Shown one piece after another: positions 11,049 to 62,062 of a stretch of 64,000 nucleotides of DNA. Under the pieces are notes generated by a model that saw only the letters and a list, made by a program, of their open reading frames with translations, had not been told where the DNA came from and searched no databases. The DNA comes from Plazaster borealis (Eukaryota > Echinodermata > Asteroidea > Forcipulatida > Labidiasteridae): NCBI GenBank assembly GCA_021014325.1, contig CM037467.1, positions 5,642,001 to 5,706,000 on the forward strand. The letters run 5' to 3'. Both the position numbers and the translations under genes were made by a program. Numbering within the stretch: position 1 is the first letter of the stretch; every line of letters begins with the position of its first letter.

Positions 11049-11182
11049 GTGCACCTCAGCTCACATTACTATAACCATAGAGAAAGGGCTACAACCTACA
11101 GCAGAACTAGCCAGTCCTAGTGGTGCCAGCTCAGTCGCAAAGACACAAGACGTGCTTTTCACTCCGATAGATAAGCCCCCAA

Positions 11183-13530: not shown

Positions 13531-13536
13531 TGTTAG

Positions 13537-20478: not shown

Positions 20479-21343
20479 CCCAGCTAACATGCATACGTTG
20501 GGCCAACGTCGATGAACGTCGGAAAAGTCGGCATCAAAAAACGAACGTTGAACAGACGTTGGGAAGGTCGGAGTCAGTTTTAAAACGTTGTACGAACGTT
20601 GGTAAACAGTATGAAATACAACGGTTAGAATTACAACGTTGTCATAACTTAGTAATGATAGGGGCAACATAACGTCGGCTAATTTAGGTTGTGCTAACGT
20701 CGGGAAATGCTGTGCAGTGAAACAGGTCGTTCACCAACGTTGGCTCAACGTAGTTATAATACGGGCAACCTAACGTTGGCTTTCATATGTTGTGCCAACG
20801 TTGGGAAATGTTGTGCAGTATAACAGGACAATTTCCAACGTTGGCTCAACGTTGTTAAAATACGGGCAAACTAACGTCCGCATCCTTAGGTTGTGCTAAC
20901 GTCGGGAAATGTTGTACAGTCTAAGAGGTCACTTTACAACGTTAGTACAACGTAGGTGAAATACGGGCAACCTAACGTCTGCATCCTTAGGTTATGCCAA
21001 CGTCGGGAATTGTTGTGCAGTATAACAGGTCAATTTCCAACGTTGGCTCAACGTTGTTAAAATACGGGTAAACTAACGTCCGCATCCTGAGGTTGTGCTA
21101 ACGTCGGGAAATGTTGTACAGTCTAAGAGGTCACTTTACAATGTTAGTACATCGTAGTTAAAATACGGGCAACCTAACATCTGCATCCTTAGGTTATGCC
21201 AACGTCGGGAATTGTTGTGCCGTATAACAGGTCACTTTCCAACGTTGGCATAACGTATACGTTATGTGGGCAACCTAACATAGGCGTCCTAAGGTTGTGC
21301 CAACGTCACGAAGTGTTGTACAGTCTAAGAGGTCACTTTACAA
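20479..21343. repeat. 101-bp tandem array with AACGTT palindromes
   Basis: The landmark GGGCAACCTAACGT or a variant recurs at about 20661, 20762, 20863, 20964, 21065, 21167 and 21268, a period near 101 bp. Each unit carries CCAACGTTGG-type palindromes. The outer end at 20479 is CCCAGCTAACATGCATACG, the same terminus as the adjoining 786-bp element. Copy 2 has the array but lacks about 87 bp at this end. Confidence 0.85.
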
Positions 21344-22129
21344 CCCAGATAACATTCATACGTTGGGCCAACGTTGGCCTAACGTTGAAATAAATGCAAA
21401 TTTGTGGGCGTGACTTAGAAGTGTGTAATTTTTATTTGACAATACTAAAACAAATTAATTGTTGAGTTTAGAAATTTCCAAGGCAAGTTGTACTTTTGTG
21501 GATAATTCGTCTGTAAGAAAATATGAACATCAAAAATACAAAAAAAACATTTGTCATTTCAATTTGTGAATTTTAATTTAAAAAGGTGTAAACCATGACT
21601 AGAAAGTCTGTAGATCCTTGACTATATAAATACAGGACATGCAGTGCACAAGGGTGTATAGGATTGTATAGGTTGTAGTTAGAATGTATTTAGATATTAG
21701 TATAGTCAATTACTTGTAGCATAACTGATAATTATAAATTAATATACACTAATTACTTGAATTAATTAAAAGAAAAATAACCTCTAAATAATTGTTTTAG
21801 ATTATTCGTACGTTGGCCCAACGTTGGGCCAATGTTGGAAATAAACGTCAATACGACGTCAGTTGCCGAAGTTGTGCCAAATAAAAAATATTACGTTTTC
21901 CCAACGTTTAACTAAAACGTCTCACGAACGTAAGACGTGCAGACGTCGGCAAAAAAAAGTACCGACGTCATAACGGGGTTGGGCCGACGTTGGGTCAACG
22001 TTGGCCCAACGTCCTCGACGTTGGCCCGATGGAAAAAACAACGTCACCACAACGTCACATGCCAACGGTTGCCCAACCAAAAATTTGTACGTTTGCCAAC
22101 GTTGGGCCGACGTATACATGTTAGCTGGG
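21344..22129. mobile_element. Palindrome-array transposon A, copy 1 (786 bp)
   Basis: The left end is CCCAGATAACATTCATACG and the right end, inverted, is CCCAGCTAACATGTATACG. Both ends carry AACGTTGGGCC-type palindromes. The middle, 21400-21790, is unique AT-rich sequence without an ORF. The element lies inside TIR transposon copy 1 and an equally long copy sits in copy 2 (34156-34941). The core also matches element B at 54830-55070, which uses a different palindrome. Confidence 0.75.
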
Positions 22130-25156: not shown

Positions 25157-25158
25157 TA

Positions 25159-34155: not shown

Positions 34156-34941
34156 CCCAGCTAACATGTATACGTCGGCCCAACGTTGGCAAACGTACAC
34201 ATTTTTGGTTGGGCAACCGTTGGCATGTGACGTTGTGGTGACGTTGTTTTTTCCATCGGGCCAACGTCTAGGACGTTGGGCCAACGTTGTCCCAACGTCG
34301 GCCTAACCCCGTTATGACGTCGGCACTTTTTTGCCGACGTCTGCACGTCTTACGTTCGTTAGACGTTTTAGTTAAACGTTGGGAAAACGTAATATTTTTT
34401 ATTTGGCACAACGTCGGCAACTGACGTCGTATTGACGTTTATTTCCAACATTGGCCCAACGTTGGGCCAACGTACGAATAATCTAAAACAATTATTTAGA
34501 GGTTATTTTTCTTTTAATTAATTCAAGTAATTAGTGTATATTAATTTATAATTATCAGTTATGCTACAAGTAATTGACTATACTAATATCTAAAAACATT
34601 CTAACTACAACCTATACAATCCTATACACCCTTGTGCACTGCATGTCTTGTATTTATATAGTCAAGGATCTACAGACTTTCTAGTCATGGTTTACACCTT
34701 TTTAAATTAAAATTCACACACTGGAATGACAAATGTTTTTTTGTATTTTTGATGTTCATATTTTCTTACAGACGAATTATCCACAAACGTACAACAACTT
34801 GCCTTGGAAATTCCTAAACTCAACAATTAATTTGTTTTAGTATTGTCAAATAAAAATTACACACTTCTAAGTCACGCCCACAAATTTGCATTTATTTCAA
34901 CGTTAGGCCAACGTTGGCCCAACGTATGAATGTTATCTGGG
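34156..34941. mobile_element. Palindrome-array transposon A, copy 2 (786 bp)
   Basis: Ends CCCAGCTAACATGTATACG and, inverted, CCCAGATAACATTCATACG. The core at about 34500-34905 holds ACTTTCTAGTCATGG, TTACAGACGAATTATCC and TAAGTCACGCCCACAAATTT. These align in order with element B at 54840-55060. The adjacent 101-bp array continues to 35719. Confidence 0.75.
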
Positions 34942-35719
34942 TTGTAAAGTGACCTCTTAGACTGTACAACACTTCGTGACGTTGGCACAACCTTAGGACG
35001 CCTTTGTTAGGTTGCCCACATAACGTATACGTTATGCCAACGTTGGAAAGTGACCTGTTATACGGCACAACAATTCCCGACGTTGGCATAACCTAAGGAT
35101 GCAGATGTTAGGTTGCCCGTATTTTAACTACGATGTACTAACATTGTAAAGTGACCTCTTAGACTGTACAACATTTCCCGACGTTAGCACAACCTCAGGA
35201 TGCGGACGTTAGTTTACCCGTATTTTAACAACGTTGAGCCAACGTTGGAAATTGACCTGTTATACTGCACAACAATTCCCGACGTTGGCATAACCTAAGG
35301 ATGCAGACGTTAGGTTGCCCGTATTTTAACTACGTTGTACTAACGTTGTAAAGTGACCTCTTAGACTGTACAACATTTCCCGACGTTAGCACAACCTAAG
35401 GATGCGGACGTTAGTTTGCCCGTATTTTAAAAACGTTGAGCCAACGTTGGAAATTGACCTGTTATACTGCACACCATTTCCCGACGTTGGCACAACATAT
35501 GAAAGCCAACGTTAGGTTGCCCGTATTATAACTACGTTGAGCCAACGTTGATGAACGACCTGTTTCACTGCACAGCATTTCCCGACGTTAGCACAACCTA
35601 AATTAGCCGACGTTATGTTGCTATCATTACTAAGTTATGACAACGTTGTAATTCTAACCGTTGTATTTCATACTGTTTACCAACGTTCGTACAACGTTTT
35701 AAAACTGACTCCGACTGGG
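34942..35719. repeat. 101-bp tandem array with AACGTT palindromes, copy 2
   Basis: Reverse-complement counterpart of 20479-21343. About 87 bp at the outer end, including the CCCAGCTAACATG terminus, are missing: the sequence joins CGACTGGGTGTCTACTGG directly, where copy 1 has the full end. Confidence 0.8.
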
Positions 35720-37317
35720 TGTCTACTGGAAAGATGAGGAATAGTAACAGGCGGGGGTTCCTTGATGTTACGGGTGCCATGGTACTCGAGGAGAGATGAC
35801 GATTTGAGGAAACCTTAGCAGGCTGATACCAGGTTGATGCTCCATGCATAGAGGCAGTCAATGAAGGATGTAAAAGAGTGATTTGCAGGTGTAGAAATGT
35901 CACTTCTGGTGAACTTAATGTGTTCAAAAGCGTCAGAAGTTTGGAAAGAAGTGCAAATGTTACCCAATACGTGCAGTATCTGAGAGACTTGCACAACCTG
36001 TGAGGGATTACCTGCTCAGCTTCCATGCTCTTACATGATGCGACACAGCCTCCTACATGACCATTGGAAAAAAAGTCTTTGAACTGGAACTTCACACAGC
36101 ATGCGACCAGGAATACATGGACGTCTCATCTCCCATTGACACAGACACACAACAGCTTAAAGGAAAGAGTGAGGTTACCTGGAAGCTGTCTGGACTACCC
36201 CTATCTCAGATGCTTGATATGAGCTAGTTTCATAAGGATGCAAATGTCAAACTATAAAACTATGTCAAAGTAACTGCGTGAATAGCATACCTTCTTGATT
36301 CATTTTACCACATAAGAAAGTTTGATAAAATTTGTATTTATTTTTAAAAACTGCCTGGGTATATTGACCTTTCAAAAAAAAGTTTTTATAAAAACAATTA
36401 TATGCAGTGTTGGGATAGGAAGTGCAAACAACTTTCTTATGCTCAAGATAAGCACTTTTTGAGAAAATCGCACTGTTAGATTTAATTTTACTATACATTT
36501 GTGTACAATACAAAAGATTAACTTATAATTTCACCGACTTGGCATGTCAATATGATGATGAAACTAGATTTTATGGATAGCTCTACCACTTGGGGTAAAA
36601 TTTGGTGAAAAATTCAAAAATGCAAAATTTTGACCATATTTGAAAATTTTGACCTCAAAATGACCTCACATGAAGGTGGTATTTGAATTATTTTTTTTCT
36701 CAAAAACTGCCTGGGTATATTGACCTTTCAAAAACAAGTTGTTTGAAACAAATATATGCACCATTGAGATGGGGAGTGCAAACAATTTTGGTATACTCAA
36801 GATATACACTTTTCAAGAAAATCACACTTCTACGTTTTGTTTTGCTATACATTTGTGTACAAGGTCAAAGTTAATTCGTTAATTACATAGGTTTGTTATA
36901 TCAACATGAAGTTAAAAATACATTTTATGGATAGATCTATCAAATGTGGTTAAATTTTATACAAATTTGGAAAATATTGATTTTTGACCTTAATTGACCT
37001 TTTGACCTTTAAATGGCCTTAAAATTTAAAATCAAGCTTGGCATCCACCCTAATCGTCTCCCTGAGCCCATGATCCATACATCTAGCATGGATGCCAGCC
37101 ATTAACAAACTATGCCGTCCAAAGTGTAATTTCACACTTTGGCTGGCCTACTATAACGGGGAAAACACAATTTGATTTTGGGAAACATCAGCTTTAGAGT
37201 GTTTTGATCCTGGAGTTGATTCCATTTGAAGAATTTTTGTAATGTCTTGTAACCGTCACCGAGTCTTCCCCAAAGGAATTTCACAATATAATAACATTGT
37301 ATGGGAAAGTTAAATAT

Positions 37318-39885: not shown

Positions 39886-41401
39886 TGTTCTATAGAATTC
39901 TGTAGAATTAAGAGCTCTATAGAACTTTAAAGCCACGGTTGTCTATAGAAATTTGATAGATATGTCTATAGAATTACCTTTCTACAGAATTTCTATTGAG
40001 GTATTTGTATAGAATATAATTTCTATAGAATGTCTAAAGAAATATTTATATAAGGAATAGAACCCCTACAGAATTTCTATAGAAACATTTTAATACAGAT
40101 AAGAACATTTTATAGCTTAATTGTTATGTATGTAAATGTGGGGAGAGCCTCACATAACCACACGCAAGTTACAATACTTGGGAGTTACCTTGGATGTACG
40201 TGTATATCATGCATTTTGGTTTTAAAGAAAAACAAGCATTTTTCACAATTTCTGTCATCAAAAATAAATGACATACACACATACATGTACTTGACACTGC
40301 TGTGGCTAGATGTCATAATGGGCTGATTGAGAATTAGTTCGTTGAAGTAAACATTATTTAATAAAAACTGTCATAAGAAATCATACTAGACAACTTCTAT
40401 GAATATTCTATAGAGCTCTAATAGAGCTTTATTGCAACGTGGACAATCGTTCTCAGCAGCTGATTGGGCCGCACTCTCATTGTTCTCATGCATAAATGCA
40501 ATACATGGTCATGAGCTCGTCCCCACAGTGTTGAGTCCACATTCAAGACCCTGATCATCAGGTGACGTTGGGAATGAGGTAGGCACTTCTAGAGAAACAT
40601 GTACAACTAGACATAGGTGTTTGTGAACAAACACAAAGCTGTTCCGGTTTTCTGATTCATAAAAAAACAAAAACAACAACAACGACCTTATGACGTGTGG
40701 TTCAGGAGATATGATTATCTAAATTTTTGAGCTTTCTGTTAAGACCGGAAGTAAAGGTCAAAGAAAGGTCATTGTTTTGAATAAAATGTCGCAAGTGTTG
40801 CAAGCTACAATACAACACAATCATTACGACCTTTTGACATGTGGTTCGGGAGATATGATGTTTTCAATATTTGAACTTCCTGTTTGGACCGGAAGTAAAG
40901 GTCAAAGTGGGGTCACCTTAGTTAATAAAATTTCGCATTTGTTAAAAGCTACCATACGAAACAAACATTACAATTTTATGACTTGTGGTTCAGGCGATAT
41001 GATCTTTTGAGTAATAAACTTTGATTTACCGTAATTTGACACCTGATGACGTCACAGAAAAAGAAATATGTTTTTCATACTAACAAATTTGATAAGGAAC
41101 ACGATGATATGCAACTTATTCCAATTTAATTTATTTTGAAATATTGTGTTTTTGACCAGCAAAACAGTTACATTTATAGCGCCATGTGGTTTGTACACAG
41201 ATGGAAACGCGCAATTAGTGACGTCATTATAACGTGGCAGGTAATGTTGGGCCAGTACTAACACCAACAATACATGACAAGTTCAGAACTGAATTCTTAA
41301 GCTAAAGAATTTCTATACATTCTATATAAAAAAGTTACATAATTTCTAGAAAAAAATATCCAACGTTTTTTTTAGAGTTCTATAGAAAAATGTTGTATGG
41401 G
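39886..41401. mobile_element. Palindrome-rich element C (TTCTATAGAA motif)
   Basis: TTCTATAGAA and close variants recur about ten times at 39886-40080, again at 40390-40430, and at 41310-41390. The right tip inverted reads CCCATACAACATTTTTCTAT, and the left side has a similar AATGTTCTATAGAATTC. Both outer parts carrying the same 10-bp palindrome is the layout of elements A and B. The middle holds three 144-bp repeat units (40687-41040). Left boundary uncertain; no core similarity to A or B was seen. Confidence 0.45.
40687..41040. repeat. Three 144-bp tandem units with ACCGGAAGT
   Basis: TTATGACGTGTGGTTCAGGA-type phrases at 40687, 40831 and 40975 give a 144-bp period. Units include GACCGGAAGTAAAGGTCAAAG, the reverse orientation of the repeat family seen in the Helitron-like elements. 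Confidence 0.7.
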
Positions 41402-42241
41402 TGAAACTGCTTGAACATCGACGGCCCACTTCAATTGTGTTCCTCATGTTTACAAAAACCAGCGGTTTAAAACCTTCAAACGAGGCACCTGTTTGGTCCG
41501 TCCAAACGTGGCTACAGTTTCCTGTCACGGAGGTGTGGCAGGCGTAATTGATAGGTTAAGAGGGTTTGGTCTGCCTTTTCTCAATAGCTAATTGTGTTGC
41601 TAACCACATAAACTGTCGGCAAAAGATAACAAGACATTCATTCGCAACAAGCCCATTGAACCATAGAACAAGGATCAAAGTCCATGCCTTGTCACCAAGC
41701 GGTGACTCACTCACACAGAGATAAGATTTTTTGTGCGTGTACAATGGTTTGTTTTTTTCACCACCCCTCCTGACCAAATTGACGACCCCTGTTGATTGAT
41801 ACCCCTTCTAGAACTTGTGTAATGGTACACTGTAGGATATCATGGAGTATCACGGGGTTGGGATCTACCATTTTGTAATGGTTATATTTTTCTTGATATG
41901 TGCCACAGCTGTTCGGTGATGGGCCTCGTTTGAGGGTTTTAAGAATAAAACATTAAGTTGATGGGCACTGTAGGGTAGTCCTGTTTACATTTGCTCATTT
42001 TGTAAGGGCACAGTTTGGCTGTTTTCGATTTTAACTATTCGATTTTAAAGATTCGTTTTATCAACAGCATTCTGGTCGGCACCATGACATCGCTAATTAA
42101 TCCTCAAATCAAATCGGAACCAATATTTTTGATCCCATCAGCATTTAATTTCTTAATTTAATTTCTGAACATTTCCCACTAATTTTTACATCTAAGGATT
42201 TGTTTACATGCTAAGCCTTTGCCTAATATGATTTGTTTATT
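41402..42241. other. Intergenic, no gene recognised
   Basis: No exon, repeat or RNA gene recognised before the hairpin array. Confidence 0.4.
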
Positions 42242-43265
42242 AGGTGTTCGTGCAATATGAGCACGAACACCTCTTTGTTTTTATTCTGGTTTTTTTTTCA
42301 TCTCCATCTTCTTCTTCTTCCTTCCGCCGAACTCTTCTCTGCAGCTTAACTCAAGATTAAAATTGAATTGAACATTGAAACTCATCAGACAATTGAACCT
42401 CAATATGAAGACGGCACAAACTTTATGACATCATGATGACGTCATCAGGTGTCGAATTACAAGGTTTTTGTGTTTGTTCGGGGTTTTTTAGGTGTTCGTG
42501 CAATTCAGCACACACCTATTGTTATTGTTCTGTTTTTTTAGGTGTTCGTGCAATTCAGCACGAACACCTCTTGTTATTGTTCTTGTTTTTTTAGGTGTTC
42601 GTGCAATATGAGCACGAACACCTCTTTGTTTTTGTTCTGTTTTTAGGTGTTCGTGCAATATGAGCACGAACACCTCTTTGTTTTTATTCTGGTTTTTTTT
42701 TCATCTCCATCTTCTTCTTCTTCCTTCCGCCGAACTCTTCTCTGCAGCTTAACTCAAGATTAAAATTGAATTGAACATTGAAACTCATCAGACAATTGAA
42801 CCTCAATATGAAGACGGCACAAACTTTATGACATCATGATGACGTCATCAGGTGTCGAATTACAAGGTTTTTGTGTTTGTTCGGGGTTTTTTAGGTGTTC
42901 GTGCAATTCAGCACACACCTATTGTTATTGTTCTGTTTTTTTAGGTGTTCGTTCAATTCAGCACGAACACCTCTTGTTATTGTTCTTGTTTAATTAGGTG
43001 TACGTGCAATATGAGCACGAACACCTCTTTGTTTTTGTTCTGTTTTAGGTGTTCGTGCAATATGAGCACGAACACCTCTTGTTATTGTTCCGTTTTTTTG
43101 GTTTTAGGTGTTCGTGCAATATGAGCACGAACACCTCTTTGTTATTGTTCCGGTTTTTAGGTAGGTGTTCGTGCAATATGAGCACGAACACCTCTTTGTT
43201 ATTGTTCCGTTTTTTTAGGTGTTCGTGCAATATGAGCACGAACACCTCTTTGTTATTGTTCCGTT
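42242..43265. repeat. Array of twelve AGGTGTTCGTGC hairpins
   Basis: The inverted repeat AGGTGTTCGTGC, a 6-7 base loop (AATATGA or AATTCA) and GCACGAACACCT occurs at 42242, 42490, 42540, 42593, 42645, 42893, 42943, 42996, 43047, 43106, 43163 and 43217, spaced 47-59 bp within clusters. T/G-rich spacers (CTCTTTGTTATTGTTC) separate them. Two copies (42490, 42893) have a damaged right arm. The right arm plus spacer resembles the 3' end of the Helitron-like elements (CACGAACACC then GTTTTTGT). Open frames across it on both strands are by-products of the repeat. Confidence 0.9.
42299..43104 (+). repeat. 403-bp tandem duplication
   Basis: The block starting CATCTCCATCTTCTTCTTC at 42299 restarts at 42702. 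Both copies contain the leading module of a Helitron-like element (ending GTGTCGAATTACAAGG) plus four hairpins. They are nearly identical, including the damaged hairpin, so the duplication is recent. Confidence 0.85.
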
Positions 43266-44139
43266 TTTTTTTGTTTTTTTCTTTTTTTTTTTTCTTCTCC
43301 TTCTTCTTCTTCCACTCAACTCATCTCTGGATCATAACTCAAGATTGAAACTGAATTGAACCTTGAAACTCATCAGATAATTGAACCTTAATAAGAAGAC
43401 GGCACAGTTGTCATTACGTCATGATGACGTCATCAGGTGTTGAATTACAGGGTTTTTAAAGTTGAAAAATGACATTTGCTTTTGCTGTATCTCAACGAAT
43501 ATGAAAGCTATGATGTTCAAAGTTTTTGCATCTGATAGACCAAGGTGGGGGCAACATTTGAAAAGTTAACGCCGAAATTGTACGACCCTAGCTTCCGGGT
43601 CGTTACCCTGGGTCGAAGTTCACCTTCGTTTTTTTTTCGTCAAAAAACAACTTTCGAGCTTATCTACGGAATAACTCAAGATTGAGATTGATTTGAATAT
43701 TAAAACTCAATAGATAGTTGAACTTCAGTATCGAGACAACACATACTTAATTACGTCATGATGACGTCATCGGGCATTAAATTACAATAAATCAAAGTTT
43801 AATATTTGTAAAAATCATAACGCAAAAACTATAATTCGGATTTTGGCAATCTACACATCATCGGATAGGTCGTCAAAAGTTTGACAAACGCTTCACAAAA
43901 CCCGTACAATATTTTAACTTACTTTTGGTTCAAAACGGAAGTTTAAAATTTCGTAATATCTTATCGTATTCATATCTTTAAAACTACTGATCATTTCAGC
44001 ATAATTTTTGTATCAGATTGTAGAACAGCAATCCCTCTTAAACTTTTGCACAGAGATAACAACATTTTAACCTTGAACATCTTGTCAAAAGCGGACAACG
44101 ATGGGCACCTTCCCACTCGTACCCCCCCCTCCACTTTAA

Positions 44140-44660
44140 TTGACAAAGCATTATGTACCCATAACGTTAAAACTCATGCAAGCTACAGTTCACGCGCTGA
44201 CTGTGTGTACTGTCGCCGTGCTTGTTTGTTAGATGTGGCAGCGGCAAACAACATAATCAACAGCGCCCTCTTTCGTTGAATATTAAATAAACAGCGCTGA
44301 TAATAGAATCGTTTTTGGGGGCTTATCTACGAAATAACTCAAGATTGAAATTGAATTGAACATTGAAACTCATAGGATAGTTGAACCTCAGTATCAAGAC
44401 AACACAAACTTAATGACGTCTTGATGACGTCATCGGGCATCGAATTATAATAAATCAAAATTTTATATTTGTAAAATTCATAATTGACAAAGCATTATGT
44501 ACCCATAACGTTGAAACTCATGCAAGCTACAGTTCCTGCGCTGACTGTGTGTACTGTCGCCGTCCTTGTTTGTTAGATCTGGCAGCGGCAAACAAATTAT
44601 TTCAACAGCGCCCTCTTTCGTTGAATAAACAGCGCTGATAATAGAATCGTTTTGGGGCTT
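44140..44660 (+). repeat. 344-bp spaced duplication inside Helitron-like element
   Basis: ATTGACAAAGCATTATGTAC at 44140 returns at 44484. Both copies run through GCGCTGACTGTGTGTACTGT and AACAGCGCCCTCTTTCGTTG. The two differ by a few substitutions and small indels. This segment is not present in the other Helitron-like copies, so it was captured by this one. Confidence 0.75.
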
Positions 44661-45063
44661 ATCTACGAAATAACTCAAGATTGAAATTGAATTTAACATT
44701 GAAACTCATAGGATAGTTGAACCTTAGTATCAAGACAACACAAACTTAATGACGTCTTAATGACGTCATCGGGCATCGAATTATAATAAATCAAAATTTA
44801 TCGTTGTAAAATTCATAACTCGGGAACCATTTATTTGATTTTTACTATCTACACATCATCGGATAGCTCATTTAAAGTTCGACGAACGCTACACAACACC
44901 TTACACTCTTTGACCTTGACTTCCGGTAATATCTTATCTTATTAATTATCTTTAAAACTACTGAACATTTCACGTTCCCAACAACATATATAATTTTCAT
45001 GGCCAGAAACTTCTTTAAATAAAAGTACTTGACTAAAAGAAAATCCGGCCCACGTAAAACTCC

Positions 45064-45125
45064 TTAAGGTTGGGACCACAATGGTCCCAGATGTTCGAAT
45101 ACGCGTGAGACTTGCACAGTCTATA
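45064..45125 (+). repeat. 60-bp block shared with 17290-17350
   Basis: GGTTGGGACCACAATGGTCC followed by GTTCGAAT and GAGACTTGCACAGTCTAT, as at 17290. Here it lies inside a Helitron-like element, so it may be a captured fragment. Confidence 0.5.
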
Positions 45126-45408
45126 AGTAACAACGTCTTGCACTAACACTACCATATCAGCTGCAATCATGATCAATGTAAAAAAAACCTAAACCATCTA
45201 AAAGGTAGTCAAAAACTAATCACGCGCTATAAAAAATGTGACCCTATTTGACCTTGACTTCCGGTCAAAACCGGAAGTTGATGTTTAATTTTTGAAAAAT
45301 TCATAACTCCTGAACCAGGAATTGGATTGATAAGGTATAATGACCTATTCATTCAATCACTCACCACGAACACCGTGTTTTTGTAGTAGACAAAAACTCA
45401 AGGTCTAG

Positions 45409-47354
45409 TTTTCTTCTTCTCCATCTTCTTCTTCCCTGGAACTCTTCTCTAGAGGATAACTCAAGATTGAAATTGAATTGAACAATGAAACTCATCAGAC
45501 AATTGAACCTCGATATGAAGACGGCACAAAGTTAATAACGTCATGATAACGTCATCAGGTGTCGAATTACAAGGTTTTAAAAGTGACCATTTTGTATTCG
45601 CTGTATCTCATTGAATTTTAAAAGCTATGATGTTCATTGTTGGGCATGTGATAGATCAAGACTGGGGCTACATTTGAAAAGTTAACGTCAAAATCGTATG
45701 ACCTTTTCTTCAAGGTCATGCCCCTAGGTCAAAGTTTGCCTTTGGTTTTTTTCTTGAAAAACATCATTTTCGGGCTTATCTACAGCATAACTCAAGATTG
45801 AAATTGAATTTTACATTGAAACTCATCAAACATTTGAACCCAAATATCAAGACGACACAAACTTGATGATGTCATGATGACGTCATCAGGTATTGAATTA
45901 CAATGAATCAAAGTTTAATATTTGTAAACAATTCATTACTCTTGAACCACAAATTGGATTTTTACAATCTATACACCATCGGATAGGTCGTTAAACGTTC
46001 AACAAACGCTACACAAAGTATGACCCTATATGACCTTGACTTCCGGTTCAAACCGGAAGTTGAAAAATTCACAAAATTCTTATCTCAAAAACCACGTATT
46101 TTTTTATCAAAGTTTTTGCATCAGGTGATAGATGATTGAGCCTGCTCAAACTTTTGCACAGACATGACAACATTTTGACTTTCACATCTGGTCAAAACAA
46201 GACGTTAAAGCCAACGTTGGTTAAAGCGCACGTGTCTCTTGACGTGACTCACGTTGACAACGCACGACGGCACGACAATGTATTAACACATGTAGGCCCT
46301 GCGCACACGCTGACCATGCATGCACGTAGCACGTGTTAAGTACAGTCTTGGTTCCAAGACGCCCCAGTTGAAGACTAATGTATGTACTGTACAGCTACAT
46401 GTATGAATACATTTAGCGTGACTGTGCAATATACAAAGAAACAACGAGCGAAAAATTCACTGTTTGAAAATGTCATAACTCCTGAACCACACATTGGATA
46501 TTAACAATCCATAAATCATCTGAAAGGTCTTAATAAACTTAACACGCGCTACACAAAGTGTGACCCTGTTTGACCTTGAATTCCGGTTCAAACCGGAAAG
46601 AGAAATTTAGTATTTAAACAAATCTTAACTTCTGAACAACTCATTCGATTTTTACAATCTATTCATCATTGGGAAAGTATGTAACAATTTTAGAAACTAT
46701 ATACAGAATGTGACCCCAATTTACCTTTACTTATTATTAAAACCGGATGATGAAATGTAATATTTGAAAAAAAAAATCAGAATTCCTTAACCACACATTG
46801 GATTTTTATCATCTATACATCATTAGAAAGGGCTCCAATGATTTAAGAAACGCTAGAAACTGTGATCTTATTTGACCTTGACTTCCGGTTCAAACCGGAA
46901 AGTGAAAGTTAATGTTTCAACAAATCGTAACTTCTAAACAACACATTGGATTTTTACAATCTTTACATTATTGGGAAAGTATGTAACGACTTAAGAAACA
47001 ATACACAGAATGTGACCTCATTTGACCTTGACTTCCCGTTCAAACCGGAAGCTGAAGTTTAATATTTTAACCAATCATAACTCTTTAATCAGACATTGAT
47101 TTTTTAAATGTATACATCATTGTATATATATATTGTCTTCAAAAAGTCAACAAACGCTGCACAAAGTGTGAACCCATTTGACCTTGACTTCCAGTTCAAA
47201 CCGGAAGTTGAATTTTTACTATGAACAAATCTAACTTATGAACCAGACGTTGGATTGATAAGGTAACTTGTTGACACCAAATCATTCACTCATAATTTGA
47301 TGACATTACTCTCGAACACCCTGTTTTTGTAACAAACAAAAACTGAATATCTAG
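45409..47354 (+). mobile_element. Helitron-like element, complete
   Basis: Starts immediately after the previous CTAG with TTTTCTTCTTCTCCATC and ends with hairpin GTTTTTGT/ACAAAAAC (47323-47343) and CTAG (47351-47354). Length 1946 bp. Contains the leading module, a second CAAGATTGAAATTGAATT module, and about six 150-bp units with TTCCGGTTCAAACCGGAA. Head-to-tail contact with both neighbours fits rolling-circle insertion into T-rich ends. Confidence 0.7.
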
Positions 47355-48998
47355 TTTTTTCTTCTCCATCTTCTTCTTCTTCTTCTTCTTCCCTGGAACT
47401 CTTCTCTAGAACATAACTCATGATTGAAACTGAATTGAACCTTGAAACTCATCAGACAATTAAACCTCAATATGAAGACGGCACAGAGTTGATGACGTCA
47501 CGATGACGTCATCAGGTGTCGAATTACAAGGGTTTTAAAGTTGAAAAATGACCATTTGCTATTGGCTGTATCTCCTTGAATTTGAAAGCTGTGATGTTCA
47601 TAATTAAGCATCGGATAGATCAAGACTTGGGCAACATTTCCAAAGTTAAAGCAAAAATCGTATGACCTTTGCTTCCGGTCGTACCGGAAGGTCAAAGTTT
47701 GCCTTTGTTTGTTTTTCTTTAAAAAATGAATTTCGGGGCATAACTCAAGATTAAAATTGAATTGAACATTGAAACTCACCAGATAATTGGACCTCAATAT
47801 CAAGACGACACCAACTTGATGATGTCATGATGACGTAATCAGGTATTGAATTACAATGAGTCAAAGTTTAATATTTGTAAACAAATCATAACTCTTGAAC
47901 CACATATTGGATTTTTACAATCTATACATAATCGGATAGGTCGTTAAACGTTCAACAAACGCTACACAAAGTATGACCCCATTTGACCTTGACTTCCGGT
48001 TCAAACCGGAGTTTGAAAAATTCACAAAATTCGTATCTCAAAACCTAATTTACAGAAGCACATTTACATAGCACATTTTGACATTTACATCTTGTCATAA
48101 AACCACCGGCATTAAAGCGCACGTTTGTGTTGACCCACTTTGATAACGCGGGATAGTGTAATAGCACGTGTACAGATACATATACATTGAACGTGTAGTT
48201 CAGTTAACATCAACTACATGTAGGAATACATTTAGCATCGCTGCATGTTACCTTGTATAATTATTGCGCACCACGGCATAAAGATAATCCATGTAATACT
48301 TGATAAATTCGTAACTCTTGAGCCACACATTGGATTTTTACAATCTATACATCATCTGAAAGGTCTTTTTAAAACCTAAGATACGATACACTTATTGTGA
48401 CCCCGTTTGACCCTGACTTCCGGTTCAAAGCGGAAGTTGAAATTTAATATTTCAAAATTCATAATTCCTGAACCACATAATGGATTTTTACAATCTATAC
48501 ATCATTGGACAAGTATGTAACAACTTAACAAACGATATACAGAATTTGACCCCAATTGACCTTTACTTCCTGTTCAAACCGGAAGATGAAATTTAATATT
48601 TGAAAAAAATCAGAACTCCTGAACCACACATTGGATTTTTATCATCTATACATCATCAGAAAGGGCTCCAAAGATTTATGAAACGCTACACACTGTGACC
48701 TCATTTGACATTGACTTCCGGTTCAAACCGGAAAGTGAAAGTTAAGTTTTCAACAAATTGTTGGAGGTTTACAATCAATGCACCATCTAAAATGTCTTCA
48801 TAAACTAAACGCGCTACACAAAATGTGACCCCTATTGGACCTTGACTTCCAGTCAAAACCGGAAGTTGATGTTAATTTTTTTTGAAAAATTCATGACACC
48901 TGAACCAGGAATTGGATTGATAAGGTGTAATGACCTATTCATTTAATCACTCACCACGAACACCGTGTTTTTGTAGTAAACAAAAATTCAATGTCTAG
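47355..48998 (+). mobile_element. Helitron-like element, complete
   Basis: Starts at TTTTTTCTTCTCCATC after the previous CTAG and ends with GTTTTTGT/ACAAAAAT and CTAG (48995-48998). Length 1644 bp. Same modules in the same order, with fewer units than its left neighbour. Confidence 0.7.
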
Positions 48999-52316: not shown

Positions 52317-54318
52317 GTAGATATTTTAACATAAAGAAACCTACTCATAATAACATTTTATCGAAATTGTTGTTCTTTTTTTGATCAAATTACAAAGGAA
52401 ATTGTAATTTTGTAACAACCACCATCTTGAACCCTAGCTTTAACAAGCCAACACGATGGTTGCGATTATGTTGTCACAACTATACCATCGCGTCACAACT
52501 AAACTGCGACAAACACTTCACAAATAACTAAAGCTCAAATATTTTTCTGGTCGAAGTCGCCAAAATGCGATCTTGCTTATATGAATGAAAAGCAAGAAAA
52601 TATAGAAAGCAAAACAACAGCACCAAATACACATAACATAAGACCAAGGATATTGATTTTTAGTTGCTCCTTGCACGGAATAAAAAAAACCAAAAAAACT
52701 TTGAATGGTCTTTGAAAAGAAAAGGGAGAAGAAAAAACAACAACTTGGAATCCTCTTTTCTTTAAAGCGCCTCTTCATTGAGACTTTAAGTTCAACAACA
52801 TTCAGGAAATAACGTTCATGCCTCCCCTCCATCAGTATTACATCATCAATTTTCTGAAAAACTAACCATCAACAAGTATTGTCTTGGCAAAACTATTTTA
52901 AAAAGGTACCATAAAGGAAACTAATAGATTTGAACAAATCGAATAAATTGTAGAGTGGGATAAAAGTAATTATTTTTATCCCACTCTACAATTCAAGATC
53001 CCACCGAAATCAAGAGACATGATCTATGGTAACAAATAAAATAAATATCAGGTCATCAAACCACATCTTATAGGCACTGGTCCTAAATGGCTATAATACT
53101 ATTTCACAGTTGAGAGACATTTCGAATATTCTGATTTATTTGATACTTGAAGAAAGTAGTACTGGACTTATCAATGTTAACCCTGCGTCCTGAGGCTCCA
53201 AAAAGAAAGTGGCTTATTCCACCATCCTTTCGGGAAGGCACTTTTAATTAAAGGGTAAGTAAGTCTGTTTAGGGGTGGTCCCAATGTATTTCCCATGCTA
53301 GAGAGACTTTGTTGTAGCCTGATGATGGATAGATTACATTGTGTTGGCTACAGACCTTATCTAGAAATAAAATGCAATGTTCGTGTACAAATTTGCATAG
53401 GCGAAACTCATACGTGTTTCAATGGTATGTTTTTTGTGTGTGAACATGTCATTGGGGACTGCCGCCGGCAAACTTCAAAGGGTGATGGTGACCTGTTAGT
53501 TTTATTTCAGTTGACTTAATAATACTGTTTGTAACGTGCCTTTTCCAAAGGATAGAAAGCGCCCACACAATTTGAAACAGAGCTGCTGGACCGACTCGTA
53601 CATATGGCAAGTCTCAAATGGGTTGCAGCAAAAAGGAAAGTTTAAATATCAAATTTGGGAAACAATTCAGTCTTTTAATTGTGGGATAATGCCCAAATTA
53701 TTAAATATGATGTCATATAGAAATATCTTATGCATGTTAGGCTATAATAGGGTTGTATATTGTGGACAGCATGGGGAGTTTCTAGTCATGAGTCATTGGG
53801 ATATTTTCATCTAAATCATAATCTAAGACTAATTAGGGTGGTGTGTGTTTTCTAAGAAATAGGGGTTGAACTTTGACATAGAATAAGTGGGCAAGCCGAT
53901 GACGTGTACTAAATTATTGGGGATCAGATTGAAGTCAAGCTAGAATTCAGCCACTATCCCAGGTCATTTAGCATGTGGACAGTTTTGGTGATCATAAAGA
54001 TTTGTTATAAGGCTGCTATACTTTGAGACATTTGTAAAAAGTTCTAATAATATTTGTTTCCTCATAAGTAAAAATGGTGCATTTAAAAGACTCTAGACTG
54101 ATGTGGCACACAACAACCTAAACTAATATTCAAAGTCAACAGATATCAATGCACCAGATTAATAATACTTTACACCACACATGAGAACAGCGTCTGTTCG
54201 TAAGCTGGTTGTATACTCCCTAAACCGTTGAAGATAGTAACCTAGTAAACACAACGTCTCTGTGAATCAAGAGAAGGTACAGCAAGTGAAACAAGTTGGT
54301 GATCATGACAACAACTGC
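52317..54318. other. Intergenic with one strong hairpin
   Basis: Contains a near-ideal hairpin at 52946-52993 but no gene that I can recognise. The open frame at 53536-53814 has no known motif and no splice context that I could support. Confidence 0.4.
52946..52993. repeat. Perfect 20-bp inverted repeat, 8-base loop
   Basis: The arm AATTGTAGAGTGGGATAAAA and its exact reverse complement are separated by GTAATTAT. Neither strand has a T run right after the arm, and there are no flanking repeats. It could be a collapsed fold-back element, a small structured RNA or a palindrome made by repair. Confidence 0.85.
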
Positions 54319-55074
54319 CCCAGGTAGCAAGCCCACATGGGTCCCATATGGGTACCAAATGGGCCAACATTTTGGACCCATGTGGGATAACCCATATGGG
54401 CCCCTGCGGATCCTGCATCCAGGATTCATATGGCCCATGGGTAGCTAGGCCCAGATAACCCATGGGTCCTGAATGGGTCCCAAATGGGGCCAACAAATGG
54501 GTTCCATATGGGTTCCACATGGGTTAACCCATTCGCACCCAAGATTCATATACGGGCCCCATATGGGTTGGCCCAGAAACCCATATGGGACACATCTGGG
54601 GCCCATCTGGGGATGGGGAAAACAATCTGGGGAAAATCTGGGTTATCCCATACGGGCAATACATGGGATTACATGGGATTCTTATGGAATCCTTGTGGGC
54701 CAAAATGAGGGTTCCATGTGGGGTCTAAAAACACCGCATCTAAAACACCGCATTATAACTAAATACAAACTACATTATAGTCAGTTATAATATAAGTATA
54801 TACTTCTCAATACATGGCATGTGTTATAACCGAAGACTTTACAGTCATGGTAAAAACCCTTTTCATCAACAAGTTTAATTTTTTATTTAGCATGTTTAAA
54901 TGAAAGTGTTTATTTGTAAAGTTTATGTACGTATTTTTCTTATAGACGAATATCTTACAAAAAAGTACAAAAACAACTTAACCGAACTAAATTTCACTGA
55001 AATGTTATAATAATTGTTAAAACACACCACTTCAATGCCCTGTAACACATATTTGCATATTACCGATATATGCC

Positions 55075-55920
55075 TGCCAAGGTCTTTAACCCATATGGTA
55101 CCCATATGGGTCTTTGCATATCCTGCCAAAATGGTATTGTCCATATTTTCCCCATGATACCCATATGGGCCAATGCAAATCCTACCCATATGGATTGCCC
55201 ATATTTTCCCCATATGATACCCAAATGGGCCACTGCATGTCCTGCCCATATGGGATTGCCCACATTTCCCCCAAGGATACTCGTATGGGCCACTGCATAT
55301 TCTGCCCATATGGGGTTGCCCACATTTCACCCATATGATACCCATATGGGCCTTTGCATATTCTGCCAATATGGGATTGCCAATGTTTTCCCCATAATAG
55401 ATACCCATATGGGCCTTTGCATATTCTGCCCATATGGGATTGACCATATTTGACCCATATGATACTAATATGGGCCACTGCATATTCTGCCCATACGGGA
55501 TTGCCAAAATTTCCCCCAAATGATACCCATATGGGCCACTGCATATTCCGCCCATATGGGGTTGCCCACATTTTTCCCATATGGGCCTTTGCATACTTTT
55601 CCCATATGGGATTGCCCATATTTTCCCCACATGATACCCGTATGGGCCACTGCATATTCTGCCCATACGGGATTGCCAAAATTTCCCCCATATGATACCC
55701 ATATGGGCCACTGCATATTCCGCCCATATGGGATTACCCGCATTTTCCCCATATGGGCCTTTGCATATTTTTCCCATATGGGATTGCCCATACTTTCCCC
55801 ATATGATACCCATATGGGCCACTGCATATTCTGCCGATATGGGAATGGCCTTAATTTCCATATATGATACCCATATTGGCCTTTGCATATTCTGCCCATA
55901 TGAGATTGCCCATTTTCCCC
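55075..55920. repeat. 60-bp tandem array of CCCATATGGG
   Basis: The cycle CCCATATGATACCCATATGG, then GCCACTGCATATTCTGCC, CATATGGGATTGCCCA repeats about every 60 bp, some 14 times. Because 60 is a multiple of three, long open frames appear on both strands; they are not genes. Confidence 0.9.
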
Positions 55921-56080
55921 CTTATAATAATAAATAATTACAACATTTATAGAGCGATAAATACGTATGTTTCTAAGCGCTATAACCAGACTATACAGAG
56001 TGACAAAACAAATGGGTTTTAAGTAATGTTTTATAAGTATCCAATGAAGGTGCCGCTTGAATGTTGGTGGGTAGCTTGTT

Positions 56081-56650
56081 CTAAAGTGTTGGAGCTATGG
56101 CCGAAAAGGCACGATCGCCATAGCGTGTCATGGTGTGGGGTCCCGGGGAAAGCTGGAAATGAGCGGTGGATGAAGAGCGAAGGCGTCGGGTAGCTGATGA
56201 TAGTAAAGATGAACGAAGGGCTAAGAGATCTTGGAGATATACTGGGGCCAAATTATGAAGAATTTTGTACACAAGAAGAAGAATTTTGAAACAAATACGT
56301 TGGTGAATTGGAAGCCAATGAAGAGAGCGAATAGTGGGTGTAATGTGCTCTGATTTTTTTGTATATGTAACCAATCTGGCAGCAGAATTTTGTATTCTTT
56401 GCAGAGTTGAGAGTTTGGGAGACCTGCCAATAAGCCGTTGCAGTAGTCCAGACGAGAAGAAACAAAAGCATGTACGATGCGCTCGGTGGCTGTCTTATCT
56501 AGATACTTTCGAATCTTCCCAATTTTACTTATGCCCCATGAAGCTGAGCAGCAGGTATTTTTGATGTGTTGGTTGAAGGTGAGATTGTTGTCGATAGAAC
56601 TCCAAGATCCCGGACATTCTCCGAGCAAGGAACAATTCCTGATTTAAGGA
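56081..56650 (-). pseudogene. LINE RT thumb and C-terminal region
   Basis: Several frames contribute: TFNQHIKNTCCSASWGISKI, IVHAFVSSRLDYCNGLLAGL, ITPTIRSLHWLPIHQRICFK, LAPVYLQDLL and TRYGDRAFSAIAPTL. These are the standard C-terminal blocks of CR1/L2 elements. Frameshifts separate them. Confidence 0.75.
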
Positions 56651-56702
56651 TGAGACTTGGCAATTTATCAGGATTCCTGAATTGAGATGAGACATGCAAC
56701 AT

Positions 56703-57430
56703 TTATGTTTTTATTTCATTAAGCTGAAGCTTATTGATTGCTGACCAGGTCTTGACATCTTTAATGCAGTTCCCGAGTCTCTGCAAGACGTCCCGTTGCT
56801 CATTGGGTTTCATAGTGATGTATATTTGAGTGTCATCAGCATAGACTGCATGTTGTATGCCTCTGTGAGAGCTTATAATTCTCCCTAAAGGGCCAGTAAA
56901 CATGATAAACAACAGAGGCCCAACGACTGAGCTATGCGGCACTCCATGAGTAAGTGGGAAAGTTCTGGAACAGGCACTGTTTACAACAATCATCTGGCTA
57001 CGACAGTGAAGATAGGAGTGGAACCACTGCAGAGCTGTCCCTGTGGTGTGATAATCAGTTTCCAGACGCCGTAGAAGGGCAGCATGATCAAGCGTGTCAA
57101 AAGCACCTGGATAGTCCAAGAGAACAAGAACAGCCTCATGCCCTTTGTCTACAGAGAGCAGGAGATCATTTGTAATTTTTACCAGCGCTGTTTCAGTGGA
57201 ATGTAAGTGACAATAAGCGGACTGATTTCGTGGAAACAACTGATGCTCATCCAGGTAAGTCCTAAGCTGAGCTGCAGCAAGTCTTTCAAGGACCTTACAA
57301 AGGAAAGGTAAGTTGGCAATAGGCCTGTAGTTCTTGAGGCCATTGCAGTCAAGACTCCGATTCTTTAAAAGAGGAGCAATATGAGCAGTTTTGAAGGAAT
57401 CGGGAACCACACCAGTTGAGAGTGATAGAT
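56703..57430 (-). pseudogene. LINE reverse transcriptase
   Basis: The frame reads PDSFKTAHIAPLLKNRSLD, NYRPIANLPFLCKVLERL, GAFDTLDHAALLRRL, THGVPHSSVVGPLLFIMF and HAVYADDTQIYITM, the ordered RT motifs. Catalytic Asp residues in AFD and YADD are present. The usual GVPQGS is GVPHSS here, a change at a conserved position. It ends at a stop at 56703. Confidence 0.8.
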
Positions 57431-58305
57431 TTATTATACGAGATATAACAGGTCAACTCATCGATGCAAGCCTTAGCCAGCCAAGTTGGAAGTGGATCCA
57501 AGCTGCAGGATTTGGAAGGAAGTAATTTAATGAGCGATTTCACTGGATTTCCAGAAACATGATTGAATTGCGAAAAATTAAAGGCCAACGTATTTCCAGA
57601 CTGTGGAGGGATTGCCATCGAAGTGGATTCAGGTTCTGGAAAAGAAGAGACAATCCCGCTGATCCTGTTTTCAAAGAATTCGCCAAATTTGTTGGCAAGA
57701 TCTACATCAGTTTGATGGTCAGGAAAGACGGTGGCTTGATTTGGACAAGAAAGTCTCTTCACAATATTAAAAAGCTGTTTCGTGTCAGCTTCTGCTATCT
57801 CAGATTTCAGATAATTAGACTTTGCTTCAAACAAAGATTTGTAGTAAGATTGACATTCCAGGTCATACAGATCTCCATCAATGCACAGACCGGATTTGAT
57901 CATTCGCCGTTCAGCGCGCCGTCTACGTCGTTTTGCCTCCTTCATTTCCTCGGTGTACCATGTTGTGTTAGGCCTCACAGTTACAACCTTGGTCTGAAGT
58001 GGTGCATGCTTGTTAAGCAGATTGGCTAAGCACTCAGTATGCTTAGCTGCAGCCTCCGAGGGACAGGCCGGTAGTTCAGACAATGCTAAAGATTCCACGA
58101 TGTCACGACTAAGCGAAGAGATGTCCATGCTCCGAAGCTTCCTGAAAGTGATTAGCTTCTTGGGATTCTTAGGTCCAATAAGGTTGATTGATGTGATGAA
58201 AGCAGAATGATCAGAGGGTAAACCGGACTGGAGCTGGACGTCACAAATGATGTCATCAATCTTTCTACTAAGCACTAGGTCGAGAGTATGACCCGCATAT
58301 AGGCC
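57430..58305 (-). pseudogene. LINE endonuclease end and linker
   Basis: From about 58305 the minus strand reads GLYAGHTLDLVLSR and SGLPSDHSAFI, the last conserved blocks of an apurinic-type endonuclease (SDH is catalytic). The linker follows (TWYTEEMKEAKRRRRRAERR, FNIVKRLSCPN). It continues as KSCSLDPLPTWLAKACIDEL, the start of RT, before a frameshift at about 57420. The open frame upstream of 58305 is palindrome sequence, not LINE. Confidence 0.75.
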
Positions 58306-58539
58306 ACGTGGGACCAATATGGGAATATCCTCTATAACCCACACCCATATGGGCCCCACATTTGGTATCATATGGGTTGACCCTGGTCCATATGATGGGC
58401 CCCATATGGCCTCAAATGGGCTTGCTCCCTGGGGCTGCTTCTCTTGTATGATAGTCTCTTTCAACCAAAAGCACAAGCTTTCTGTATTATGCTGGTACAA
58501 TTGCTGTGACTGATGAGCTGTCCCTCAACGAATCAACTA

Positions 58540-59540: not shown

Positions 59541-62062
59541 TCAGATCAGGAAACACTTATTTGCACTGTATCTCCGCCGAAGTGCATTCCTTGAGATCAT
59601 GTATGTCTTGTTGCTACTGTAGATATTAAAATATCTATTGTTTCCAAAAAATTCAACATCAGACCCATATTCAGGAGAAGCATTGAGACCAAGAGAAGTC
59701 AGCATCCCCATGTCAATGTTATTGTTATTTACATTGACTCTCTGTATGTTAGGCAGACTTGACAGCATACACAGAAGTGCCTCCATGTTTCTATTTTCAA
59801 GCCCACACTTTTTCATGTTCAAGGAGAGAAGAGATGAAACGGGGGTGATTGTACCTTTCTGAAGACCACAGAGGTTGTTCTTACTCAGGCCAATCCACTG
59901 AATGTTACCCACAGCAGCAACGATATAGAACAATCCCCTCATATCATCCTTCTGTAATGAGCAATCCATAAGAATCAAAGACTCCAAAGACAGGACCTGA
60001 CTGACCTGAACAGGCATTATGCCATGGAGATTATTCTCACTCAGATTAAGCCTCTTGACATTGCTTAATGCTGACAAAAAACGGAGAAGAACATCAACGG
60101 TGTCCTTTGTTAAACTGCATCCACTAAGATTCAGTGTAGTGACAGATGAGGAAGAGCAGATGTCATCAGTTCGCAAACTACACAAGCTATTGTTGCTAAG
60201 ATCTACTGATGCAATACTGCCAGTTGCTGAAATCATTTGAAACAGCCTTGATATGTCTTTGCTGTCCAGATTGCAGTCACTCACAAACAGAGACGTGGCA
60301 TGCTTAGAAATATCTCTGAGAGTTTCAATCTTGCCATTCATGTTGACTCCTTCGAGATCCAGTGACTTTGTTGGTATGCCATGTCGCATTATGTCCTTCA
60401 CAAGTTCAATATCAGCCAAAGAATGACAAATAACAAATATACATGATACATGTGGCAGCCCAGTTTTTTTCCCCAAAGTTTTCACAAAATAATGAGCAGC
60501 CAATAAGTGTTCACCTTGAAGCATACATGAAAAACGAACCCACTCTGCATCTGCAAAGTCTCTCACCATGAAGTCCAACTCCGCCTCAAACAAAAGCAAC
60601 ATCATGATCCTACGATACGGAATATAGTTGTAAAGGAAACCAATGAAGGTGTCCAGTTCATTATGACTTAGCTTCTCACTTACAAGGCCAATGATTATTT
60701 CAGCAGCAGTTGAATTCAGACCACAACAGAACCGAAGTAAATACTCCATGGTGTCCATGTCACCAGCCAGAATTTGTGACACATGCTTTCTGAATGCCTC
60801 GGGGTTAGAGGATGCCAAGTTTGCAAGGTACATTGCTGCATAGTATTCCTGAAAGGTCTTATGGAGGAAGGTGACATAGTTAACTTCATCAAACCCATGC
60901 ATAGCCTTGATGTGAGCCAGCAAACCAACTTCACATCCCAAAGCAATAACCCTCTCAGAGTCAAACTCTGTATGTGTAAAATGGAACTTTACACCATTTG
61001 GATTCAGCAGACCCCCAAGCGCTACCTTGCCGAGTTTGATACTCAGGTCATTAAATGTTGCTGTTGTGAAGGTGTTAGAACAACTTACTGGGCTTTTACT
61101 AACCCTGTGCTGATACAGAACCCTTACTGCAGTGTTAAACAGCTTTGTGACCCTATCAGGTAGCTTACGGCATTCCTCCCATGTGGTACACATCAACCAG
61201 AACAGCAATGGTATCTCTCCTAATGTACGCAGGGTTTGTGACTCCCTGACTTCCTTCAGAAGCTCACTTTGGTATTTGGAATCATAGTTAGTCAGATATT
61301 TCCCAACATACTCCTGCCTGTTATCATCATTGAAACCAGTAACCTTAACCCGAGTAAAATGTGGATACCACTTGAGAAGCTTGAGAGCTGTAAACTGTCT
61401 GCTAGACACAATAACTCGGCATGATTTAAGGGACTGGAAGGAAAGGACCCCTTTGATAGTATCTACTCCATTTGCCCCGTCTAACTTCTGAAAAGAAACC
61501 TCATCTGCCCCATCAAACAGAATTAGGACTTCCTCTGGATGTTTCTGAAGAAACGTTTTCAGATCATTTTTCGTCAGGCAGTTACAGTCCGTAAGGATCT
61601 GAGAAAACATAGCATCAATGAAGTTGAACTCCTCACTCATTAGATTTAAATTCAAGAGAAATAAGAGTCTGTATCCCGCCAGGGGAGACTGTGAAAGAAG
61701 GGGACGTTTTGGGGACTGATTAAGAGCCCAATCATAAGCAATCTTTTTCAAAAGTGTTGATTTTCCATAACCAGTCTCAGCTGTGACTAAGATTCGTTTT
61801 GTACCAGGGCCATCGGGATGTATTATGTCTTCATAAGAATCTAATGGAATCTTTTCATGGTCAGGTTGCAAGGTGGAGTTCTTAGAATGATGTCCCTCAA
61901 GTCGATTCGTTTCTCTCAGGAGTTGCAAGTTGACATGAAGTTCAGGCATCCCCATGGCTCGATCCTTGGCCAAAGGGTACGTTGTCACTTTCATTGTTTC
62001 GATGTAATGATTAGCTATTTCTTTACTGCAGGTCAATACATCAACAGCAGACCCAACCACAT
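59541..62062 (-). CDS. DEATH-NACHT-LRR receptor, main exon
   Basis: About 839 codons uninterrupted to the stop at 59541-59543. NACHT ATPase: RILVTAETGYGKSTLLKKIA is Walker A (about residues 90-107), EEVLILFDGADEV Walker B (176-188), RVIVSSRQF sensor 1 (215-223). Winged-helix end: FLHKTFQEYYAAMYLA (398-413). Leucine-rich repeats span about residues 560-795, seen as VASVDLSNNSL, TTLNLSGCSL, KRLNLSENNL, ESLILMDCSL and QWIGLSKNNL. The exon begins after acceptor CTGATTTCAG with two bases that complete the codon left open by the DEATH exon. NLRs of this type are cytosolic sensors in innate immunity; the ligand is unknown. A shuffled fragment of this gene lies at 15850-16567. Confidence 0.9.

What the first reader, a model, noticed from the sequence alone, without database searches (positions are those of the whole stretch)
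54319..58433. Transposon families A and B share ends and core but use different 10-bp palindromes
Element B ends in CCCAGGTAGCAAG and is packed with CCCATATGGG. Element A ends in CCCAGATAACATT or CCCAGCTAACATG and is packed with CCAACGTTGG. Yet their AT-rich cores align in order: ACTTTCTAGTCATGG with ACTTTACAGTCATGG, TTACAGACGAATTATCC with TTATAGACGAATATC, and matching CACACTTCTAA/CACACCACTTCAA and ATTTGCAT stretches. So core and termini are kept while every palindrome in the element, at both ends, has been replaced together. That implies a copying or conversion process that homogenises the palindrome within an element, or selection that ties it to a matching protein. I know of no described element class with an exchangeable palindrome set, but I could not search.
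Basis: partly seen in the sequence, partly recalled or inferred. Interest (0 to 1): 0.88.

Follow-up and report, generated by a model that had tools for sequence, protein, structure and literature searches.

The report
Starfish transposons swap their palindrome code
In a starfish genome, a group of small mobile DNA elements shares one middle section, which is likely a promoter of the kind that drives U6 small RNA, while different lineages pack the space around it with different short palindromes, likely the docking sites of a co-evolving transposon protein.

Summary
Cores A and B are homologous (0 of 500 shuffles as good), and of 77 core-bearing loci none mixes the two palindromes. The core occurs with three distinct codes: CAACGTTG-type, CCCATATGGG, and ACCAAT-N2..4-ATTGGT (one locus, L067). 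On a core tree these need 2 changes, against a shuffled mean of 22.8. The CAACGTTG group shows weaker lineage biases in its outer bases. The genome is almost certainly Plazaster borealis. Ends CCCAG..CTGGG with 2-bp target duplications (20 of 20) match animal CACTA-like TRC elements (PMC1636069), and diverging subterminal repeats are known in plant CACTA elements (PMC2613891). So the palindrome turnover is a new variant of a known kind. New: read on the minus strand, the core carries an octamer, a PSE-like box and a TATA box, with the box-to-TATA spacing of this genome's own U6 and U6atac genes; it is likely a U6-type promoter. Against: no transposase was linked, no conserved RNA fold was found, and the window's B copy lacks the TATA. 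L067 also has other termini, so ends and core can part.

The parts
54319..58433 (+). Element B, CCCAG..CTGGG ends, GC duplicated at 54317-54318 and 58434-58435; CCCATATGGG arrays; interrupted by a likely retroelement
54720..55080 (+). Core of element B
54837..54852 (-). PSE-like box of B (TACCATGACTGTAAAG); the TATA box that relatives have is missing in this copy
55051..55058 (-). Octamer ATGCAAAT of B, 206 bases upstream of the box
55090..55930 (+). B right array, 61-bp tandem unit with CCCATATGGG
34156..35719 (+). Element A, copy 1, TG duplicated at both sides
34500..34905 (+). Core of element A, copy 1
34677..34692 (-). PSE-like box of A copy 1 (AACCATGACTAGAAAG)
34651..34660 (-). TATA box of A copy 1 (TATATAAATA), starts at position 33 counted from the first base of the box
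34884..34891 (-). Octamer ATGCAAAT of A copy 1, 199 bases upstream of the box
20479..22129 (-). Element A, copy 2, inside the inverted duplication
21591..21606 (+). PSE-like box of A copy 2; box, TATA and octamer together

Best explanation
These are short DNA transposons, likely non-autonomous, of a starfish genome whose CCC ends and 2-bp target duplications match the animal CACTA-like (TRC) group, whose shared core is likely a U6-type snRNA promoter, and whose lineage-specific palindromes are likely the binding sites of a TnpA-like transposon protein. Shown: one core occurs with three distinct palindrome codes; no counted locus mixes them; each code follows the core lineage; the right arrays of A and B are tandem repeats. 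Inferred: a helper protein made by an autonomous relative binds the subterminal palindromes, as TNPA does in maize En/Spm. When its preference shifts, matching sites are favoured and spread through the arrays by tandem amplification, so the whole set turns over while the promoter core, and mostly the ends, stay. Read on the minus strand, the core would recruit SNAPc and TATA-bound factors through octamer, PSE-like box and TATA and be transcribed leftwards, most likely by RNA polymerase III. What that transcription is for is open; keeping the element in accessible chromatin is the likeliest use, since no conserved RNA structure was found.
For: Core homology. Codes and exclusivity: of 77 loci, CAACGTTG in 47, CCATATGG in 24, ACCAAT..ATTGGT in 1, none of these in 5, two of them in 0. 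Core tree of 80 rows: three codes need 2 changes against a shuffled mean of 22.8, minimum 18 in 200; finer labels need 6 against 34.6. CCCAG ends with perfect 2-bp duplications in 20 of 20 A- and C-type loci whose canonical ends both lay in the fetched stretch, as in TRC elements (PMC1636069). Diverging subterminal repeats with conserved ends in soybean CACTA elements (PMC2613891). Promoter: the PSE-like box ranks first of 888 positions in 64 of 80 rows with a matrix made from four snRNA genes without reference to the transposon; TATAWA at 29-39 in 68 of 80 rows, exact octamer at 187-223 upstream in 59 of 80; TATA-like boxes at the same position 33 in U6 and U6atac; ACCRTG at -59/-60 in 5 of 5 U1 upstreams fetched; in the window the three-part combination is found only in the two A copies.
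Against: No transposase linked: 10 Transposase_21 matches, the nearest about 68 kb from a listed core, and the core lists are capped. The helper protein is not seen. The promoter matrix fails when a divergent U2 gene is added. For B cores the box is weak: box plus TATA reached in 14 (L009) and 105 (L014) of 1000 shuffles. The window's B copy has no TATA. No conserved RNA fold, T-runs at varying distances. L067 has other termini. The 80 rows include the three window copies twice and many near-copies, so they are not independent.
Confidence: 0.5

Rival explanations
1. No protein is involved: the palindromes drifted and were homogenised within each lineage by tandem amplification and conversion, and the code is a by-product of array turnover.
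For: The right arrays of A and B are tandem repeats; flanking-base biases within the CAACGTTG group look gradual and mixed.
Against: The same code also fills the left side of the elements, where only a short 11-bp tandem stretch was found in B and none in A; the main words CCAACGTTGG and CCCATATGGG are both perfect palindromes.
Confidence: 0.2
2. Modular exchange: the core is the part that moves. Elements with their own ends and palindromes acquired the same core by recombination or capture, rather than palindromes being replaced around a fixed core.
For: L067 has a core 83% identical over 379 positions to the locus read as L085 but different termini (CACCCTAAAAAC, TA duplication) and a different code; it groups with ACAACG-type cores at support 100.
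Against: It is one locus. The CCATATGG and CAACGTTG lineages share similar CCCAG ends as well as the core, which fits replacement of the palindromes there.
Confidence: 0.2
3. The core is the ordinary 5' region of the lost transposase gene, and the octamer, PSE-like box and TATA are coincidence or a Pol II promoter on either strand.
For: The core also has a splice-acceptor-like block, TTCTTAYAGACGAAYAT on the plus strand, conserved between A and B; no conserved RNA fold.
Against: Box plus TATA in 0-1 of 1000 shuffles for six of eight cores tested; the same box-to-TATA spacing as in this genome's U6 and U6atac genes.
Confidence: 0.25

Closest known systems
Animal TRC (CACTA-related) transposons: SmTRC1 and the Tribolium and Aedes relatives (PMC1636069, passages read)
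   Same: Ends begin CCC (Aedes end CCCAGTCAAC); 2-bp target duplications; a tandem-repeat region in SmTRC1
   Different: No Transposase_21 gene was linked to our elements; the SmTRC1 passages do not describe exchangeable palindromes or a shared promoter-like core
Plant CACTA elements with subterminal repeats bound by TNPA-like proteins: En/Spm, Tgm1, Tgmt (PMC2613891, passages read)
   Same: Conserved ends, subterminal repeats in both orientations that differ between families, co-evolution with a DNA-binding protein proposed there
   Different: Ours end in CCC with 2-bp duplications rather than CACTA with 3 bp; perfect palindromes; a common core is kept across codes
U6-type (type 3) Pol III promoters of snRNA genes
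   Same: Order octamer, PSE-like box, TATA; TATA at position 33 from the box as in this genome's U6 and U6atac genes
   Different: No snRNA gene follows (0 Rfam matches in 8 loci); no conserved fold downstream

Membership tests
CACTA / TRC DNA transposons | Inverted termini beginning CCC (animal TRC) | tested here: met
   CCCAG..CTGGG in A, B and C-type loci; L067 has CACCC instead
CACTA / TRC DNA transposons | 2-bp target duplication (animal TRC) | tested here: met
   20 of 20 loci, ten different dinucleotides
CACTA / TRC DNA transposons | Transposase_21 gene in an autonomous member | tested here: inconclusive
CACTA / TRC DNA transposons | Subterminal repeats bound by a TnpA-like protein | not testable with these tools
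   Repeats are present; binding needs an experiment
Tc1/mariner | Insertion at TA only | tested here: not met
   TA in 4 of 20 duplications
U6-type (type 3) Pol III promoter | PSE like that of the host's snRNA genes | tested here: inconclusive
   First of 888 positions in 64 of 80 rows with a four-gene matrix, but not when a fifth, divergent U2 gene is added
U6-type (type 3) Pol III promoter | TATA box at the U6 spacing from the PSE | tested here: met
   TATAWA at 29-39 in 68 of 80 rows, position 33 in A copy 1; U6 and U6atac have TATA-like boxes at 33
U6-type (type 3) Pol III promoter | Distal octamer upstream | tested here: met
   Exact octamer 187-223 upstream in 59 of 80 rows
U6-type (type 3) Pol III promoter | A defined small RNA with a T-run terminator | tested here: not met
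   T-runs at varying distances, no conserved fold, no Rfam match in 8 loci

The most novel reading that the evidence does not exclude
A DNA-transposon clade carries a U6-type Pol III promoter as its one conserved core and runs an exchangeable cis-code: the promoter core is kept while palindrome sets, and even termini, are traded, so that each lineage answers only to its own helper protein.
Probability: 0.3. Interest if true: 0.85.

Novelty: new variant of a known kind. Interest (0 to 1): 0.6.

Why it matters
It offers, inside one animal genome, natural elements that share a core, and mostly ends, but differ in the subterminal code: material to test how a transposon's binding sites and its DNA-binding protein co-evolve, a question raised for plant CACTA elements (PMC2613891, passages). 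If the core is a working SNAPc/TATA promoter, this would be a DNA transposon whose conserved heart is a U6-like promoter; the titles listed by two searches (2 of 2 papers, 12 of 13) name no such element.

Tried and rejected
Palindromes replaced in register inside homologous array units: TTGCCCGTATTT against TTGCCCATATTT, but 161 of 1000 shuffles score as well; rejected. Five uniform codes: my first reading; exact counts show that TCAACGTTGA occurs in only 1 of 7 loci of its label and that CCAACG-labelled loci often hold ACAACGTTGT too, so these are word biases inside one CAACGTTG code. Core as a known RNA: 0 Rfam matches in 8 loci. Core as a structured RNA: alifold energy about 0, no better than shuffled columns. 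B-core loci with few or no CCATATGG (L009, L011, L016, L019, L021, L026, L029) as a further family: they lie in the B clade and look decayed. A larger family with L067's ends: only its own two ends match exactly; 19 sites with up to 2 mismatches against 8 for the reversed pattern. A transposase near a core: none.

Rows dropped before counts: L006, L025, L028 and L030 (motif not found); L087 (left out). L086, L088 and L097 entered by other anchors and are not in the 77 loci. The 80 rows are 77 loci plus the three window copies again (L005, L035, L038 are the same elements). L032 was labelled CCAACG by my rule because of scattered matches on its right; it has four CCATATGG on its left and lies in the B clade; one search counts it as B. 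Of three U6 matches only the full one was used; L090 (68 of 105 positions) and L091 (below cut-off) were read and set aside. Of 46 U2 matches four and of 15 U1 matches five upstreams were fetched. The boxes of the U2, U6 and U1 genes were first found by scanning with the transposon motif, which is circular; in several genes it was tied or second best. avoids this. The matrix does not.

Full report
Origin. The window is a 64-kb piece of a 560.6-Mb assembly in 717 contigs. Contig C17 is 24,975,817 bases long, exactly the published scaffold N50 of the sea star Plazaster borealis (561 Mb, 22 chromosome-scale scaffolds, GC 38.89%; PMC9270726, passages). The window's GC is 39.1%. The paper gives 801 scaffolds, so the assembly held here may be another version.

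Observation. Core A and core B align far better than dinucleotide shuffles, 0 of 500 under two scorings. Genome searches with each core gave 42 match rows each (119 and 131 candidates, the best 40 scored). Of 30 loci found with core B, 25 match core A as well, and all 30 found with core A match core B. A multiple alignment of 23 loci shows shared blocks through the core. CCCAGATAACATT is an internal copy of the A terminus.

One core, three codes. A pattern on one conserved block found 110 sites against 8 for the reversed pattern; a second block found 91 against 0. In 77 loci, CAACGTTG occurs in 47, CCATATGG in 24, ACCAAT-N2..4-ATTGGT in 1, none of these in 5, and no locus has two types. On a tree of 80 cores the three codes need 2 changes, the least possible, against a shuffled mean of 22.8 and minimum 18 in 200. 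The B clade (26 rows) has support 99. Near-copies help any label to cluster, so this mainly shows that code and core lineage go together. Within the CAACGTTG code the outer bases differ by lineage: a CCAACG bias in A and C types, TCAACG in a clade of 7 rows (support 100), ACAACG in others. These are biases, not uniform palindromes: CCAACGTTGG is in 37 of 40 loci of its label, but 21 of those 40 also hold ACAACGTTGT, and TCAACGTTGA is in 1 of 7 loci of its label.

The odd locus. L067 (C8:16706450-16708412) has a core 83% identical over 379 positions to the locus read as L085, whose arrays are ACAACG-biased, and it groups with L085, L072 and L097 at support 100. Both its sides are packed with ACCAAT..ATTGGT, and its termini are CACCCTAAAAAC with a TA duplication. 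It is the clearest case of one core in a different frame, and it shows that termini can change too.

What kind of transposon. The 20 loci of A and C types with both canonical ends in the fetched stretch all have perfect 2-bp duplications, ten different dinucleotides in all; B in the window has GC on both sides. CCC ends and 2-bp duplications are what DeMarco et al. describe for animal TRC elements of the CACTA superfamily (PMC1636069, passages). In soybean, CACTA families with conserved ends have different subterminal repeats, and co-evolution with a TNPA-like protein was proposed (PMC2613891, passages). The genome holds 10 Transposase_21 matches, 9 over the cut-off; the nearest to a listed core is about 68 kb away, and those lists are capped, so the link to a transposase remains open.

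What the core is. Read on the minus strand, the A core has the octamer ATGCAAAT, 199 bases later AACCATGACTAGAAAG, and a TATA box starting at position 33 of that box. In this genome's own genes, ACCRTG lies at -59/-60 in 5 of 5 U1 upstreams fetched, ACCATG or ACTGTG in 3 of 4 U2 upstreams; U6 has ACCGTA at -64 and U6atac ACCCATGAG at -66, with AATAAAAT and TATATATT at position 33. A matrix from U6, U6atac and two U2 genes, placed without reference to the transposon, ranks the core's box first of 888 positions in 64 of 80 rows; with a divergent U2 gene added it fails. In shuffled cores a box as good plus TATA occurs in 0-1 of 1000 for L035, L065, L067, L082, L075 and L085, in 14 for L009 and 105 for L014 (the last two are B); with the octamer added, in 0 for seven and 1 for L014. 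L082 has no exact TATAWA, and L067 and L009 no exact octamer. In the window, box plus TATA plus octamer is found only in the two A copies at thresholds 5 to 8. Over 80 rows, 68 have TATAWA at 29-39 and 59 an exact octamer at 187-223 upstream. The window's B copy keeps box and octamer but lacks the TATA.

Limits. The stretch that would be transcribed has no conserved fold, T-runs at varying distances, and no Rfam match in the 8 loci scanned. A conserved block between octamer and box (TTCTTAYAGACGAAYAT on the plus strand) is unexplained. Of the literature searches, two on snRNA-type promoters in transposons and one on starfish, echinoderm or CACTA/MITE elements (12 of 176 listed) showed no title on this group; the held library is partial and no listed paper was opened from these three.

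Verdict. Its palindrome part is a new variant of the known CACTA habit of diverging subterminal repeats; the promoter-like core and the L067 case are what is new.

Noticed in passing
19048-25159 and 31169-37153: A large inverted repeat, arms of about 6 kb at 98-99% identity; both window copies of element A sit inside it, so they are one insertion duplicated.
   Followed up: partly
55920-58300: A reverse transcriptase gene (RVT_1, 56703-57410, minus strand) inside element B, likely an inserted non-LTR retroelement.
   Followed up: partly
59541-62060: An 839-aa frame with NACHT and leucine-rich-repeat matches, an innate-immunity type gene.
   Followed up: no
9088-10551 and 26341-27135: Reverse transcriptase/RNase H and integrase domains of retroelements.
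   Followed up: no
1488-15725 and 41047-47504: TGACGTCA occurs 23 times, often as ATGACGTCATCAGGTGT.GAATTACA, a separate dispersed repeat with its own palindrome.
   Followed up: no
55090-55930: Units of the B right array often carry an octamer-like TTTGCATA (6 exact) or TGCATAT (11) beside the palindrome, as if the distal promoter element had been amplified with it.
   Followed up: partly
L067, right flank of the core: A further small insert flanked by TTTAA-like ends lies between the core and the right array.
   Followed up: no
genome, C7, C17, C250, C552 and C667: Seven sites CACTCTAAAAAA[A/G]GATTGATT resemble L067's terminus and may mark another CACT-ended family.
   Followed up: no
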